Part shown: positions 18,954 through 44,160 of the stretch, piece by piece | How the letters are laid out: each line of letters opens with the position of its first letter | Position numbering within the stretch: the first letter of the stretch is position 1 | Assembly: GCA_000991645.1 (NCBI GenBank) | Contig: LBRX01000002.1 | Span: 1 to 44,311, forward strand | Direction: 5' to 3' | DNA from: Candidatus Moranbacteria bacterium GW2011_GWE2_36_40 | Lineage (GTDB): Bacteria; Patescibacteriota; Minisyncoccia; Moranbacterales; GWC2-37-73 | DNA: 44,311 nt | Program-made: the position numbers and the translations under genes | Notes under the pieces: generated by a model | Database searches by the model: none | What the model saw: the letters and a program-made list of their open reading frames with translations, nothing else | Told to the model about the DNA's origin: nothing

Positions 18954-18999
18954 ATTGATGTTTGTGGACATTTTTATAATAAAATTGTAGTATTAGATA

Positions 19000-19130
19000 T
19001 CAATTTTCAATTTTTAATTTTCAATTTTCAAACAAATCTCAATGATTCAATGTTATAATTTTCAAACATTGAGAAATTAAGTCATTGGAAATTGTTTAGA
19101 AATTAGAAATTGAAAATTAGAAATTATTAA
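19000..19130. repeat. AT-rich imperfect inverted repeat (CAATTTTCAATTTTTAATTTTC…GAAATTGAAAATTAGAAATT)
   Basis: Self-complementary; same style as 44025-44160. Confidence 0.65.
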
Positions 19131-22501: not shown

Positions 22502-25471
22502 ATGCAGGAAAATAAAATAGTCATCAAGGGTGCGCGTGAGCATAACCTAAAAAATATAGATTTGGAGTTGCCTCGAAATAAGTTTATCGTGTTTACGGGG
22601 CTTTCTGGTAGTGGAAAATCAACATTGGCATTTGACACTATCTTTGCGGAAGGTCAGAGAAGATATTTGGAAAGTTTGTCGAGTTATGCTAGGCAATTTT
22701 TGGGACAAATGGATAAGCCTGATGTTGACTATATTGAAGGACTTTCGCCTGCTATTTCTATTGATCAAAAATCAACATCTCACAATCCACGTTCAACGGT
22801 TGGAACTGTAACAGAAATTCATGATTATCTGAGACTTCTTTATGCAAAGATTGGAATTCCACATTGTCCAGAATGTGGACGTGAAATTTCCAAGCTTTCA
22901 ACTGATGAAATTGTGGACAGAATTTTGAATCTCACTGAACCTCACCCCGACCCTCTCCTTAAAAAGGAGAGGGGGGAAAATGGAAACGCGAATACGCGCA
23001 ACGTTTCTATCGAAATTCTTTCACCGTTGGTGCGTGAGCGAAAGGGCGAATATTTGGCGATCCTTGATGATATGTGGAAGCGTGGATTTTCTGAGGCGAT
23101 TGTGGATGGAAAATTATTGCGCCTGGAAGATTTTAAAGATGTAAAGCTTGAGCGATATAAAAAACATAGCATTGATATCATTGTTGATCGTGTTGAAATA
23201 AATGATGAAAATTTGACGCGAATTTTTGAAGGAGTGGAAAAAGCTCTTAGGCTTTCACATGGGATTGTAAAAGTAAAATGTCAAAAACAACAGACAGCAG
23301 ACAATAAACAACAAACAACAAAAAATTCTAAATCCAAAAATTCAGATGAGTGTGAGGTTGAGCAGATTTTTAATCAGAATTTATCTTGTCCAATTCATGA
23401 TATTGAATTTCCAGATTTGGAACCTCGATTGTTTTCATTTAATTCTCCATTTGGTGCCTGTGAAGCTTGTGAGGGATTGGGTGTGAAGAAAGAAATTGAT
23501 CCTGCAAGAATAATGCCAGACAAAAATAAAACCATTGCCGAAGGAGGTTTGATGCCTTGGAGTTATAAAAAAAATAATTATATTGGTTCAGTGCTTAAGG
23601 CGGTTTGTGAATTTTATTATATACCAGACAATAAACGTTTGCGTGACCTGACCAAAACTCAATTGGATTTGTTGCTTTATGGTCATAGTGATGAGGATGT
23701 AATTAGGGTAAAGTTTTTTGCACGCGGGGGTGGAGGACATTTTAATGTGACATGGAAAGGCGTGATCTTTTGGATGCAAGAGCGCTATAGAACAACAACT
23801 TCAGATGCAATTAGACAAGACATTGAAAAATACATGTCTCAAAAGTCTTGTAGTGTTTGCCATGGTTCACGTTATAAAAGTCAGGTGCTTTTAGTTACAG
23901 TTGGACAAAAAAATATTCATGAAACCTCAATTCAAAGCATAAAAGAATGCATATCTTTTTTTGAGCATATTAAACTTACACATCGTGAAGAATTAATTGC
24001 AGGAAGAATCCTCAAGGAAATTGTTGCACGTTTGGTATTTTTGAATAATGTTGGATTGGATTATTTGACATTGCAAAGAGCTGCTTATTCTTTGTCAGGA
24101 GGAGAGTCCCAGCGCATTCGCTTGGCATCACAAATTGGCTCACAATTGGTTGGCGTGCTGTACATTTTGGATGAACCATCTATTGGTCTTCATGCACGTG
24201 ATAATATTAAGCTTATTGACGCATTGCGTCATCTGCAAAAAATAGGAAACACTTTGATTGTTATTGAGCATGATGAAGAAATGATGCGCAGTGCTGATTG
24301 GCTTGTGGATATTGGACCACGTGCCGGAAAACATGGTGGGGAAATTGTTGCTCAAGGAACACCAAATGAGGTTATTAACAATCCCAATTCTCTTACTGGT
24401 CAGTATCTTAGAGGAGAATTGCAAATTGAAATTCCTAAGGTTCGTCGCTCTATAAATAAGAAGAGATCTATTACTGTGCGTGGTGCGAGTGAACACAATC
24501 TTAAGAATGTGACAGTTGAATTTCCACTTAAAGTTTTCACTTGCGTGACTGGAGTTTCTGGCTCTGGAAAATCAACGCTGGTTGAGGACACCTTGTATAA
24601 AGCCTTGGCCAATAAGCTTCATCGTGCACTTGATGTGCCAGCACATCACAATGAAATTATTGGAATTGAGAATATAAACAAAGTAATCATGATTGATCAG
24701 TCACCGATTGGAAGAACACCACGATCAAATCCTGCTACCTATACCGGACTTTTTACACATATTCGTGAATTGTTCGCTAAAACAAAGGATGCTAAATTGC
24801 GAGGATATGGACCAGGACGTTTTTCTTTTAACGTTGCTGGTGGACGTTGTGATAATTGCAGTGGAGAAGGATATTTGAAAATCGAAATGCAATTTATGCC
24901 TGATGTTTATTTGCCGTGTGATGTTTGTCATGGAAAAAGATATAATAGTGAAACACTTCAAGTGAAATTCAAAGGTAAAAATATTGCAGAAGTATTGGGA
25001 ATGACTGTTTCGGAAGGTGTTGAATTTTTTTCCTCAATTTCAAAAATTTCTGATCCTTTGAAAATTTTGGAAGATGTTGGCTTGGGATATATCGAACTTG
25101 GTCAAAGTGCTACCACGCTTTCTGGCGGGGAAGCGCAAAGAATAAAACTCGCCTCTGAACTTTCCCGTCGTGCTACTGGGGACACGTTGTATATCCTGGA
25201 TGAACCAACCACAGGGCTGCATTTTGATGATATAAAAAAATTATTGGAAGTACTTAATCGTCTTGTAAATGCTGGCAACACCGTTGTTGTAATTGAACAT
25301 AATATGGATGTTATTAAAACTGCTGACTGGATTATTGATATGGGGCCAGAGGGTGGAGATGGTGGCGGAAAGATTATCGTTACTGGCCCACCGGAAGAAA
25401 TCATCAAATATTATAAAGAAAGCTACACCGCCAAATATTTGCGGCAAGTTTTGAAACCGAAAAGTCTATAA
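22502..25471 (+). CDS. uvrA: Excinuclease ABC subunit A (copy 1)
   Basis: [45 protein letters not shown]; two ABC signatures ([22 protein letters not shown]); CxxC zinc sites. Confidence 0.97.
22940..22978 (+). repeat. CCTCACCCCGACCCTCTCCTTAAAAAGGAGAGGGGGG repeat inside uvrA
   Basis: Perfect CCCTCTCCTT/AAGGAGAGGG hairpin; encodes [15 protein letters not shown]. Confidence 0.8.
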
Positions 25472-26167: not shown

Positions 26168-27646
26168 ATGAAAAGAAATAATTTTCAAGATATTGTCAAA
26201 AAATTACCACAAGCACTAGGGGTGTATTTTTTTCGTGGGGGAAAAGGCAAAATTTTGTATATTGGCAAAGCCACAAATTTGCGAAGTCGAGTGGCTTCAT
26301 ATTTTCGCGGGCAGGGTTCGGAGTCCGACTCCGAATTTCGGAGTCGGACTCCGATCACACCACTTAGCGTGGCAGGTCGAAGTGAGTGGATTGGCTTGAT
26401 GGTTTCTCAAGTGGTCAACATTGATTTCGAGCAGACCGATTCTGTGCTGGAGGCTTTAATTTTGGAAAGCAACTCAATCAAAAAACATCAGCCAAAATAT
26501 AATACACTGGAAAAAGATGATAAAAGTTTTTCATATTTTGTTGTGACTAAAGAAGAATTTCCAAAAGTTTTGATTGTGAGGAAAACCGACTTGAAAAATT
26601 ATGTCATTCCGAACTTGTTTCGGAATCTAGAAGAGCCCAGCGAGATCCCTGAGCTAAATTCAGTGCAGGCTCTGAAACAAGTTCAGGATGGCAAAAAAAC
26701 AAACACTAAGAAGCTAATGCCTGAAAAGCTAAAAGCTATTTACGGTCCTTACACAAGCAAGCAGCAGATGCAGATTGCGCTTAAGATTATTCGCAGAATT
26801 TTTCCATTCCATGCTGGCAAACAAAAAACTGAAAAAGGTTGTTTGGATTTTCAAATAGGGATGTGTCCTGGGCCTTATGCGGATGCAATTTCCAAAGTTG
26901 ATTACAGGAAAAATATCTGTGGAATCGAAATGATTTTGCAGGGAAAGAAAAAAAGTTTGATTTCAAGAATGGAAAAAGAAATGCAGACTTTTTCCAAAAG
27001 AAACGAATTTGAAAAAGCGGCAGTCCTCCGAAATAAAATTTTTGCATTGCAACACATTCGCGACGTGGCGCTGATGACAAGAGATTTTGAGCCTGTTGAA
27101 TTTTCTAAAAAGCTAACGCCTAATAAGCTAAAGCCTGCCCGCATTGAGGCTTACGACATCTCTAATATTTCAGGCGATCACGCTGTGGGCTCGATGGTAG
27201 TTTTTTCCGCCAAAGGCGGATCCGCCTTTGGCGGAGAAAACTGGCTGCCGGAAAAATCGCAGTATCGAAAATTCAAAATTAAAACAGTAGAAGGTTCAAA
27301 TGATGTGGCGATGATGAAAGAAGTTTTGTCGCGAAGATTTAATAATGACTGGACAATGCCAGACTTGATTTTGTTAGATGGTGGACAGGGACACGTTAAT
27401 ATGGCAGGGGACTTAGTACGCGAATTAGGACTAGATGTATTGATTGTTGGTGTAGCTAAGGGTAAGACGCGTAAAAATCTCAATTTCCAATTTCCAATTT
27501 CCAATAAAATCCAAATGACTCAATTTCCAAGGGAATTGCAGGATTTTTTGAATGATAAAAATTCAGTAAAGCACATAATGGATGAGGCGCATCGTTTTGC
27601 AATCTCTTATCACCGAAAATTACGCAGCAAAAACTCTTTAAAATAG
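26168..27646 (+). CDS. uvrC: Excinuclease ABC subunit C, apparently lacking C-terminal HhH2
   Basis: GIY-YIG (GVYFFRGGKGKILYIGKATNLRSRV), UVR motif (NEFEKAAVLRNKIFAL), RNase-H-like YDISNISGDHAVGSMVVF…DLILLDGGQGHVN. Confidence 0.93.
   Translation: MKRNNFQDIVKKLPQALGVYFFRGGKGKILYIGKATNLRSRVASYFRGQGSESDSEFRSRTPITPLSVAGRSEWIGLMVSQVVNIDFEQTDSVLEALILESNSIKKHQPKYNTLEKDDKSFSYFVVTKEEFPKVLIVRKTDLKNYVIPNLFRNLEEPSEIPELNSVQALKQVQDGKKTNTKKLMPEKLKAIYGPYTSKQQMQIALKIIRRIFPFHAGKQKTEKGCLDFQIGMCPGPYADAISKVDYRKNICGIEMILQGKKKSLISRMEKEMQTFSKRNEFEKAAVLRNKIFALQHIRDVALMTRDFEPVEFSKKLTPNKLKPARIEAYDISNISGDHAVGSMVVFSAKGGSAFGGENWLPEKSQYRKFKIKTVEGSNDVAMMKEVLSRRFNNDWTMPDLILLDGGQGHVNMAGDLVRELGLDVLIVGVAKGKTRKNLNFQFPISNKIQMTQFPRELQDFLNDKNSVKHIMDEAHRFAISYHRKLRSKNSLK
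26319..26353 (+). repeat. Perfect 15-bp inverted arms CGGAGTCCGACTCCG/CGGAGTCGGACTCCG inside uvrC
   Basis: 5-nt spacer AATTT; encodes the GSESDSEFRSRTP segment. Confidence 0.9.
26603..26692 (+). repeat. GTCATTCCGAACTTGTTTCGGAAT…CTGAAACAAGTTCAGGATGGC composite palindromic repeat inside uvrC
   Basis: Shares GAACTTGTTTC/GAAACAAGTTC with argS 36998-37076; encodes VIPNLFRNL…ALKQVQDG. Confidence 0.85.
27206..27235 (+). repeat. 30-bp perfect palindrome TCCGCCAAAGGCGGATCCGCCTTTGGCGGA inside uvrC
   Basis: Exactly self-complementary; encodes SAKGGSAFGGE. Confidence 0.95.
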
Positions 27647-36783: not shown

Positions 36784-38298
36784 ATGAAGAAAAACATCCA
36801 AAAAATTATTAAAAGTGCCTTAACTGAGGCAAAAAAGTCCAATGGCTGGCCTGATTTTGAGTTGAATGAAATTATAGTGGACTACCCAAAAAGCGAGCAA
36901 TTTGGGGATTATACTTCAAATATTGCCATGATTCTAGCCAAGAAAATTGGTAAAAATCCAATGGAAACGGCAAATTATCTCAAGGAGATTATTTGTCGTC
37001 CTGAACTTGTTTCAGGATCCCGTGATGTTACGAATGGCGCGCAAAGCATAGAGATGCTGAAACAAGTTCAGCATGACATGACAGGGATTTTTGAAAAAAT
37101 AGAGGTGGCTCAGCCGGGATATCTTAATTTCTATCTTTCTAAAAAATATTTGCAAGATATTGTTGAAAAAATAAATACTGAGAAAGAGAAATTTGGAAAT
37201 TCTGAAGTTGGAAAAAATATTAAAATTAACAATGAGTTTATTTCTGCCAATCCGACCGGACCACTTCATCTTGGAAATGGACGTGGTGGATTTTATGGAG
37301 ATTCTCTTTCACGCGTTTTGCGAAAGGCTGGATTTGAGGTAACGAATGAATATTACGTTAATGATGCTGGTGGGCAAGTTGAAAAATTAGGGCATAGTGT
37401 TTTGAAAGACGAAGAGGCTTCATACACTGGAGAATATATTGATGAGCTTAATAAGAAGTATGCAAAGCTAAAAGATGTACGAGAGATTGGAAAAATTGCA
37501 GCTCGTGAAGTTTTGGAAAATATCATCAAAAAAACTACCAAAGAAAAAATGCAAATTTCTTTTGATGAATGGACAAGTGAACAAAAACTTAGTGATGAGG
37601 GATATGATAAGCGCGCTATTTCATTGCTCAAGGAAAAAGGATTAACCTATGAATCAGAAGGTGCGCTGTGGCTTAAGACTACTGACTTTGGTGATGATAA
37701 AGACAGGGTTTTAATTAAAAAAGATGGTAAAAATGCTTATATAGCTGGAGATTGTGGTTATATGCTCAATAAAATTGAAAGAGGGTATTCGCGATTAATT
37801 ATGGGACTTGGTGCTGATCATCACGGATATGTGTCGCGGCTTAAAGCAGTGGCGTTAGCGCTTGGATTTAATGAAGATTTTAGAATAATTATTTCACAAT
37901 TGGTTAGGTTGATAAAGGATGGTAAAGAAGCCCGCATGAGTAAACGCGCAGGAAATGTTATTAATCTTGATGATTTGATTGATGAAATAGGACACGATGT
38001 AACAATATTTTTCTTCTTGATGTATTCTCCTGATACTCATATGAATTTTGATTTGGGATTAGCAAAAGAGCGTAGTTCTAAAAATCCTGTTTTTTATGTG
38101 CAGTATGCACATGCGAGAATCGCCAGTATTCTTGCAAAGTCACAAATAACTAACAATCTACAACAAACAACAGAAAAAACAAAAAATTTGAATTTTGACC
38201 GTAGTAAGTCGTTAGTTGTTAGTTGTGGGTTATTGACTCATGAAAAGGAATTGAGTTTGAAAGTTATGAGGTTCACAAACTTCCGCAATATGCAATGA
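36784..38298 (+). CDS. argS: Arginyl-tRNA synthetase, truncated by frame change (C-terminus continues in another frame to 38459)
   Basis: ISANPTGPLHLGNGRGGFYGDSL (HIGH-like), MSKRAGN; anticodon-binding domain continues as ESYEVHKLPQYAMKLADKFHSFYDACKVIDENNEELTIARLSLINAVRIVLAEVLELIGVGAPSKM in a different frame. Confidence 0.9.
   Translation: MKKNIQKIIKSALTEAKKSNGWPDFELNEIIVDYPKSEQFGDYTSNIAMILAKKIGKNPMETANYLKEIICRPELVSGSRDVTNGAQSIEMLKQVQHDMTGIFEKIEVAQPGYLNFYLSKKYLQDIVEKINTEKEKFGNSEVGKNIKINNEFISANPTGPLHLGNGRGGFYGDSLSRVLRKAGFEVTNEYYVNDAGGQVEKLGHSVLKDEEASYTGEYIDELNKKYAKLKDVREIGKIAAREVLENIIKKTTKEKMQISFDEWTSEQKLSDEGYDKRAISLLKEKGLTYESEGALWLKTTDFGDDKDRVLIKKDGKNAYIAGDCGYMLNKIERGYSRLIMGLGADHHGYVSRLKAVALALGFNEDFRIIISQLVRLIKDGKEARMSKRAGNVINLDDLIDEIGHDVTIFFFLMYSPDTHMNFDLGLAKERSSKNPVFYVQYAHARIASILAKSQITNNLQQTTEKTKNLNFDRSKSLVVSCGLLTHEKELSLKVMRFTNFRNMQ
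36998..37076 (+). repeat. GTCCTGAACTTGTTTCAGGATCC … GATGCTGAAACAAGTTCAGCATGAC composite palindromic repeat inside argS
   Basis: Two inverted hairpins; encodes RPELVSGSRD…EMLKQVQHDMT. Confidence 0.9.
38146..38237 (+). repeat. TAACTAACAA…TTAGTTGTTAGTT repeat inside argS
   Basis: caaataactaacaatctacaacaaacaacag…gtcgttagttgttagttgtgggttattg; same motif as 16908-16976 and 29283-29312. Confidence 0.65.
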
Positions 38299-38499
38299 AA
38301 TTGGCTGACAAATTTCATAGTTTTTATGATGCATGTAAGGTTATTGATGAGAATAATGAAGAGTTAACAATCGCTAGACTTTCTTTGATAAATGCTGTTA
38401 GAATAGTGTTAGCTGAAGTCCTTGAGCTTATTGGGGTGGGTGCACCTTCTAAGATGTAAAATTAGCTTAAAAGGTGGTTTAAATTGAAAATTATGAGAA

Positions 38500-38575
38500 G
38501 TTAATTAGTTGCATAGGTAATTAGTTAGATAGGAATTCCTAATTAACTAATAAACTAATTAACCAATCAACTAAA
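38500..38575. repeat. AGTTAATTAGTTGCATAGGTAATTAGTTAGATAGGAATTCCTAATTAACTAATAAACTAATTAACC inverted repeat
   Basis: Same family as 17185-17272 and 17764-17845. Confidence 0.7.
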
Positions 38576-38578
38576 TAT

Positions 38579-44023: not shown

Positions 44024-44024
44024 A

Positions 44025-44160
44025 AATTTTTAATTTTCAATTTTTAATTTCTAAACAATCCGCCAGCTGGCGAACTAGTGACTTAACTTTAAAATTTTTA
44101 AAAAATTGATGCATTGGAACATTGAGATTTGTTTGAAAATTGAAAATTGTGAATTGTAAA
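44025..44160. repeat. AT-rich inverted repeat with AATTTTCAATTTTTAATTTC … GAAAATTGAAAATTGTGAATTG
   Basis: Same style as 19000-19130; includes TCCGCCAGCTGGCGAA. Confidence 0.65.

What the first reader, a model, noticed from the sequence alone, without database searches (positions are those of the whole stretch)
26168..27646. uvrC carries at least five different repeat-type insertions yet stays open
In one 492-codon gene: 15-bp inverted arms (26319-26353), the GAACTTGTTTC composite (26603-26692), two AAGCTAA(T/C)GCCT(G/A)A(A/T)AAGCTAAA units (26702-26740, 27109-27138), a 30-bp perfect palindrome (27206-27235) and a CAATTTCCAATTTCCAATTTCC block (27477-27530). Several separate families converge on the same gene while the GIY-YIG and nuclease motifs are kept.
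Basis: partly seen in the sequence, partly recalled or inferred. Interest (0 to 1): 0.75.

Follow-up and report, generated by a model that had tools for sequence, protein, structure and literature searches.

The report
Dispersed DNA repeats inside working uvrC
In this small-genome bacterium several unrelated families of short, genome-wide DNA repeats have slipped in frame into the floppy loops of an intact DNA-repair gene (uvrC) and of many other housekeeping genes, and relatives have filled the same loops with other repeats: a well-resolved new example of a known but rare phenomenon.

Summary
The window is from a Moranbacteria (Patescibacteria) draft genome. Its single uvrC (492 aa) passes the UvrC equivalog model, keeps its catalytic motifs and is under purifying selection (pN/pS about 0.2). 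All five repeat blocks are real. Two palindromic ones (aa 50-66, 143-173) are clean in-frame insertions relative to a sister species; a third (27206-27235) is a 30-bp mini-hairpin pair. The other two are 7-bp ('heptad') tandem blocks in hypervariable loops, older and partly shared with relatives. In 38 Moranbacteria UvrCs the same few sites hold different repeats: 31% of non-core bases are repeat-like against 3.4% of core bases, and AlphaFold's low-confidence segments fall on these sites. But uvrC is not special: of 73 clean in-frame insertions in 432 conserved genes, 47% have further copies in the genome against 2.2% of controls (hosts: polA, ligA, uvrA, argS, pheS/T, rpoD, atpA/G, tsaD...). 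Best explanation: small mobile-like repeats land widely, and only in-frame, stop-free copies in tolerant loops survive. Closest precedents: Rickettsia RPEs and intragenic REPs. Apparently new: the lineage, heptad-armed inverted elements, and reuse of one loop by unrelated families. The mobilising enzyme is unknown.

The parts
26168..27646 (+). uvrC, 492 aa: GIY-YIG, UVR and RNase H endonuclease domains
   Evidence: TIGR00194 304 bits (cut-off 285); Pfam domains; single copy; pN/pS 0.19-0.27 against seven relatives
26315..26365 (+). Insertion 1 (aa 50-66) after the GIY-YIG motif, holding the F37 palindrome GGAGTCCGACTCCG..CGGAGTCGGACTCC at 26318-26354
   Evidence: absent from sister L033/G005; 6 copies in the genome, 3 genic, none in G005; AlphaFold low-confidence segment 58-70
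26594..26686 (+). Insertion 2 (aa 143-173), GTCATTCCGAACTTG..CAAGTTCAGGATGGC inverted-repeat element (inverted arms 26599-26696), linker after the GIY-YIG domain
   Evidence: absent from L033 and L037, a different palindrome in L032; 10 copies, 6 genic; 21 other matching places; low-confidence 157-185
26702..26747 (+). AAGCTAA/GCCTGA heptad-like block in the same linker
   Evidence: L033 and L037 have AAGCTA units here too
27105..27138 (+). AAGCTAACGCCTAATAAGCTAAAGCC heptad-like block in the UVR to RNase H linker
   Evidence: shared with L033 as part of a 70-bp identical run; other lineages have other heptads here; low-confidence 305-320
27206..27235 (.). F30 element: two 15-bp mini-hairpins, in a loop of the RNase H domain
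   Evidence: absent from L032, L033 and L037 (L033 has another short palindrome), close variant in L042; 6 copies, 5 genic; in 30 of 54 relatives; low-confidence 351-355
27474..27530 (.). CAATTTC heptad array plus a further CAATTTCC, resembling one arm and part of the centre of a heptad-armed element, in a loop of the RNase H domain
   Evidence: period-7 array; arm consensus; other repeats in the same loop in other species
18998..19118 (.). Intergenic full heptad-armed inverted element in this window (comparison copy)
36994..37078 (.). argS insert of the same GTCATCC..GGATGAC family as insertion 2 (comparison copy)

Best explanation
uvrC is a working gene whose linkers and surface loops have collected several members of the genome's small dispersed repeat families: GC-rich mini-palindromes (21, 30, 37, 45 and 56-110 bp) and AT-rich elements whose inverted arms are made of about four 7-bp units. 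The repeats spread through the genome by some copying or transposition process. Copies that land in genes survive only if they are in frame, stop-free and in a tolerant loop, so a few loops are filled again and again by different families in different lineages. Shown here: dispersal, in-frame empty sites, loop positions, constraint on the gene. Inferred: that the spread is transposition-like (clean insertion without target duplication, as with single-strand HUH/Y1 copying of hairpins, the enzyme being lost, divergent or missed), and that the inserts are neutral or slightly harmful rather than useful.
For: Clean in-frame insertions against a sister genome. 34 of 73 such insertions in conserved genes have other copies in the genome against 16 of 730 core controls. 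Exact 45-bp and 30-bp empty sites without target duplication. Repeats concentrated in non-core UvrC, 31% against 3.4% in 38 species, and the same sites reused by other families. AlphaFold low-confidence segments at 58-70, 157-185, 305-320, 351-355 and 444-447 coincide with the sites. pN/pS about 0.2 and conserved catalytic residues. Genic arrays favour the stop-free strand, p 0.0003.
Against: No Y1 transposase in this genome or in four congeners, so the mover is not identified. About half of the clean insertions had no detectable second copy, and structure-based detectors explain only 21 of 125 indels in conserved genes. Two heptad blocks are more conserved in DNA than the rest of the gene, which simple neutral decay does not predict.
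Confidence: 0.82

Rival explanations
1. The inserts are useful: added linker peptides tune UvrC (partner or DNA binding, damage tolerance), or REP-type insertion in repair genes is selected because it raises the mutation rate, as speculated for REPs in uvrABCD and polymerases (PMC3733652).
For: uvrA, uvrC, polA and ligA all carry inserts here; DNA of two heptad blocks is unusually conserved.
Against: Most hosts are translation and metabolic genes; the inserted peptides differ completely between species at the same site; they fall in low-confidence, probably disordered loops.
Confidence: 0.08
2. The heptad blocks arise in place by replication slippage of 7-bp units and are not dispersed elements; only the palindromes are mobile.
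For: Heptanucleotide repeats are the commonest 5-11 nt class in many genomes and slippage has been proposed (cited in PMC4679880); array units vary; many different heptamers occur.
Against: Arrays come in opposed pairs (59 neighbours within 150 bp against 10.9 expected) with a shared non-repeated inner sequence AAACAAT..CAATGA that recurs in 36 of 54 relatives with no hit for the reversed control pattern. Slippage alone gives neither inversion nor shared inner sequence. It may still apply to solo arrays such as AAGCTAA.
Confidence: 0.07
3. Assembly artefact or decaying pseudogene.
For: Draft metagenome-assembled genome; unusual length variation of the protein.
Against: No stops; pN/pS about 0.2; catalytic residues kept; independently assembled relatives show the same pattern at the same sites; copies of a family differ from each other.
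Confidence: 0.03

Closest known systems
Rickettsia and Wolbachia palindromic elements, RPE/WPE (Ogata, Claverie and co-workers; R. japonica PMC3767692; review PMC2229807)
   Same: Dispersed palindromic repeats inserted in frame in conserved protein genes, mapped to solvent-exposed places; different groups reported at or near one locus in orthologs; ATGAC motif frequent in RPE-4/6/7, and GTCAT..ATGAC ends are seen in most copies of the family of insertion 2 here.
   Different: Another phylum; shorter units (21-45 bp besides 56-110 bp); several families in one gene; the same loops refilled in many genera; no sequence homology to RPEs was tested.
REP elements inside genes (Di Nocera et al. 2013, PMC3733652)
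   Same: Small palindromes within uvrA, uvrB, DNA polymerase I, DNA ligase and other repair genes; proposed to sit in linkers or loops.
   Different: Those REPs carry GTAG or CGTC tags; the GTAG ones are linked to RAYT transposases, the CGTC ones apparently lack a dedicated transposase. Here hosts are mostly not repair genes and no Y1 transposase was found.
Heptanucleotide direct repeats (TAACTGA in Beggiatoaceae, PMC4679880; STRRs in cyanobacteria, from memory)
   Same: Genome-wide 7-bp direct repeats, a few units per set.
   Different: The TAACTGA sets are one heptamer, mostly intergenic; here many heptamers, often as inverted arms of one element, and 52 of 162 arrays lie inside genes.

Membership tests
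UvrC (TIGR00194) | Score above the curated equivalog cut-off | tested here: met
   304.2 bits against 285.45
UvrC (TIGR00194) | GIY-YIG and RNase H catalytic residues | tested here: met
   Y20, Y31, G33, R41, E100, D330 and D404 invariant, H475 nearly so, in 49 sequences; alignment to PDB 3c65 and 8b0q; fold matches
UvrC (TIGR00194) | C-terminal helix-hairpin-helix region | tested here: not met
   No such Pfam hit; the protein ends after the RNase H domain and relatives end at the same place
Protein-coding palindromic repeat (RPE-like) | Palindromic, multi-copy, in frame inside conserved genes | tested here: met
Protein-coding palindromic repeat (RPE-like) | Insert in exposed or disordered position | tested here: met
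   AlphaFold low-confidence segments coincide with the sites; surface area not computed
Rickettsia RPE proper | Sequence homology to RPE families | not tested
   only the ATGAC-type ends resemble RPE-4/6/7; no RPE model at hand
REP/RAYT system | Y1 (RAYT) transposase in the genome | tested here: not met
   PF01797: none in G000-G004, found in 34 of 54 relatives; the draft is 94.6% complete
Classical MITE | Target-site duplication | tested here: not met
   F45 and F30: net 45 and 30 bp, no duplicated flank at empty sites in G005; heptad elements not testable this way

The most novel reading that the evidence does not exclude
The heptad-armed inverted elements (two opposed arrays of about four 7-bp units around a centre of roughly 5-80 bp, tens of copies per genome, full or part copies translated inside TsaD, TsaE, a glycosyltransferase and UvrC) are an undescribed class of mobile or amplifying DNA in Patescibacteria, and a few UvrC loops act as landing pads that unrelated repeat families have entered independently in many lineages.
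Probability: 0.4. Interest if true: 0.68.

Novelty: new variant of a known kind. Interest (0 to 1): 0.5.

Why it matters
Patescibacteria are usually described as streamlined, yet here about half of the recent clean in-frame insertions in conserved proteins are dispersed repeats. UvrC across one order is a natural insertion scan: it shows which loops of a two-nuclease repair enzyme tolerate 5-75 extra residues. It also gives a clean system (exact 30- and 45-bp empty sites between species of one genus) for asking how protein-coding palindromes move, which has been open since the Rickettsia elements were described in 2000. Practically, odd peptides such as [20 protein letters not shown] or LKQVQHD in annotated proteins of this group can be read as repeat DNA rather than as functional motifs.

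Tried and rejected
RAYT/Y1 transposase as a resident mover: none found in the own genome or in G001-G004. Rfam: no family in the window; two sub-threshold chance matches in uvrC. A pattern for the 45-bp family over 380 genomes of the phylum was mis-spaced (it missed even the own genome), so that search says nothing. Long elements with heptad arms flanking a gene: no clear case; arms 600-3000 bp apart were about as many as arm density predicts by rough estimate. 'uvrC is uniquely targeted': rejected; 2 clean insertions where 0.25 is expected by length, but 13 genes have two or more. 'Repair genes are preferred': not supported, since most hosts are translation or metabolic genes, but no formal background count was made. 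Pseudogene: rejected.

Full report
WHAT THE GENE IS. The window is contig 2 of a 1.006-Mb, 63-contig draft genome, 94.6% complete. The nearest named relatives of its uvrC are Candidatus Moraniibacteriota / Moranbacteria. The ORF 26168-27646 is the only UvrC in the genome, scores 304 bits against the TIGR00194 cut-off of 285 and has GIY-YIG, UVR and RNase H domains. Solved UvrC halves match by sequence and by fold. Catalytic residues are invariant or nearly so among 49 relatives. Core pN/pS against seven relatives is 0.19-0.27, so the gene is under purifying selection.

THE FIVE BLOCKS ARE REAL. The repeat finder gives 18-nt perfect inverted arms at 26318-26354, 26-nt arms (81%) at 26599-26696, a 44-nt near-perfect palindrome around the 30-bp 27206-27235, and the heptad blocks. 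In a second-order shuffled genome there were no palindromes of score >=16, against 63 in the real genome. Period-7 arrays numbered 101 against 1, while period 6 gave 4 and period 8 gave 27.

INSERTION OR NOT. Codon-guided alignment with relatives and a gene-by-gene comparison with the sister genome G005 (597 reciprocal best hits, median 81% identity) show that aa 50-66 and aa 143-173 are clean in-frame insertions. The 30-bp palindrome is absent from L032, L033 and L037, but L042 has a close variant at the same place and L033 a different short palindrome ([10 protein letters not shown]). The AAGCTAA blocks sit in the two interdomain linkers: L033 and L037 also have AAGCTA units at the first, and L033 shares the second within a 70-bp identical run. 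The CAATTTCC block fills a loop whose length is not unusual and is shared with other species and genera.

SAME LOOPS, DIFFERENT REPEATS. In 38 distinct Moranbacteria UvrCs, non-core bases are 31% repeat-like against 3.4% for the core (the palindrome threshold is lax, so read it as a contrast). Site 1 holds a GGAGTCC palindrome here and GTCATCCCGAACTCG..CAAGTTCAGCATGAC in L032. The UVR to RNase H linker holds AAGCTAA, AACATGG/AAATACC, CCTAAAA/CCTAATA or GTCATCG heptads depending on lineage. The RNase H loop at 27474 holds CAATTTC arrays, an F30-like hairpin pair (L006), a GTAGAGACGC-type palindrome (L048) or the AATTTCTAATTTCTAAACAATTTCC arm (L022). An AlphaFold2 model from our own alignment (mean pLDDT 79.6, pTM 0.59) has its low-confidence segments at 58-70, 157-185, 305-320, 351-355 and 444-447, that is, at these sites.

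THE PHENOMENON IS GENOME-WIDE. Of 73 clean in-frame insertions of five or more residues in 432 orthologs at >=70% identity, 34 (47%) have another copy elsewhere in the genome at >=36 bits, against 16 of 730 (2.2%) length-matched core segments. By structure alone (heptads or palindromes) only 21 of 125 indels in these genes, and 31 of 510 in all orthologs, were recognised, so the copy test is the more sensitive one and half of the insertions remain unexplained. Hosts named by NCBIfam include PolA, LigA, PheS, PheT, ArgS, LeuS, RpoD, AtpA, AtpG, TsaD, MiaA, DusB, Elp3, PrmC, FolC, MurE, RNase III, RNase J, GrpE, PorB, PorD and TatD, besides UvrA and UvrC; some of these had weaker second copies. 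uvrC has 2 clean insertions where 0.25 is expected by length; 13 genes have two or more where 6.8 are expected. It is in the upper tail but not alone.

THE ELEMENTS. F45 (CCCGCCTCG..CGAGGCGGG) has 16 copies, 8 genic, 13 of them with the same 43-bp core length; four genic copies have 45-bp empty sites in G005 without target duplication. F30 has 6 copies, 5 genic, with exact 30-bp empty sites at two genes. A CCTGCC..GGCAGG family of about 21 bp also occurs. F37 and F30 are absent from G005, so these families are young here or were lost there. F30 copies in relatives show paired changes within each 15-bp half (TCCGCC/GGCGGA to TCAGCC/GGCTGA, TGCGCC/GGCGCA, TCGGCC/GGCCGA), so the unit looks like a doubled mini-hairpin of 6-bp stem and 3-nt loop (read from the list, not formally scored). 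The heptad arrays come in opposed pairs: 59 neighbours within 150 bp against 10.9 expected, 42 of them opposed. Aligned copies run AATTTCNAATTTCNAATTTCNAATTTCNAAACAATNNCAATGA...TCATTGGAAATTGTTTAGAAATTAGAAATTGAAAATTAGAAATT. This arm motif occurs in 36 of 54 relatives with no hit for the reversed control pattern. Paired arrays are read through in TsaD (C32), a glycosyltransferase (C3) and TsaE (C18). Genic arrays prefer the stop-free strand (36 of 52, against 72 of 178 strand readings of intergenic arrays, p 0.0003), as expected if stop-making insertions are purged.

MECHANISM. Shown: dispersal, clean in-frame empty sites, tolerated loops, constraint on the host gene. Inferred: movement by copying of hairpin DNA without target duplication, as HUH/Y1 enzymes do (general knowledge), followed by purifying selection. 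The inference is weak because no Y1 gene was found in this genome or four congeners, although the draft is incomplete and 34 of 54 relatives have one. What does not fit well: the DNA of two heptad blocks is more conserved between species than the rest of the gene (52- and 70-bp identical runs). Gene conversion between copies, or constraint on the DNA itself, are possible.

COMPARISON WITH THE KNOWN. Rickettsia and Wolbachia palindromic elements are inserted in frame in conserved genes, in exposed positions, sometimes with different groups at one locus (PMC3767692, PMC2229807). REPs inside uvrA, uvrB, DNA polymerase I, DNA ligase and other repair genes of unrelated bacteria have been described (PMC3733652). 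Heptanucleotide arrays are known as mostly intergenic sets (PMC4679880). In the open-access library searched I found no report of either in Patescibacteria; subscription papers are not held. The case is therefore a new variant of a known kind, with the heptad-armed inverted elements as its most novel part.

Noticed in passing
window 27600-27646 (C-terminus of uvrC) and relatives: UvrC ends right after the RNase H domain and lacks the C-terminal helix-hairpin-helix region; all Moranbacteria relatives aligned end at the same place.
   Followed up: partly
window 27072-27141 and 27461-27512: Two heptad blocks are the longest identical DNA runs in uvrC between species (70 bp with L008/L033, 52 bp with L003/L032, 36 bp with another genus), above the conservation of the rest of the gene.
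   Followed up: partly
L152:3318-3432 (tsaD), L115:15921-16036 (glycosyltransferase), L138:887-979 (tsaE): Paired opposed heptad arrays are translated through inside conserved genes.
   Followed up: partly
window 44024-44157; contig 3 57309-57432; contig 43 1592-1727: Heptad-armed elements carry smaller palindromes in their centre (CCGCCAGCTGGCG, CCTGCCTGCCAGAGGCAGG, TTCGCCAATTGGCGAA), as if repeats insert into repeats.
   Followed up: no
own genome, period-8 arrays such as AACTAATC; window 38499-38577: A separate class of 8-bp tandem arrays, 35 of 43 intergenic; the commonest units contain stop codons.
   Followed up: no
contig 5 of the own genome (18598, 35144, 36837, 37255, 38924), contigs 9 and 34: Near-perfect 28-bp palindrome GTAGAGACGCATTGCAATGCGTCTCTAC, 8 copies, six of them on one contig, none in G005; a relative (L048) has a similar palindrome inside uvrC.
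   Followed up: partly
window 22502-25471 (uvrA), about 22934-22984: uvrA carries its own 17-aa insert [17 protein letters not shown] (palindrome CCCTCTCCTTAAAAAGGAGAGGG, one of 7 copies) plus a heptad array at 23291-23326.
   Followed up: partly
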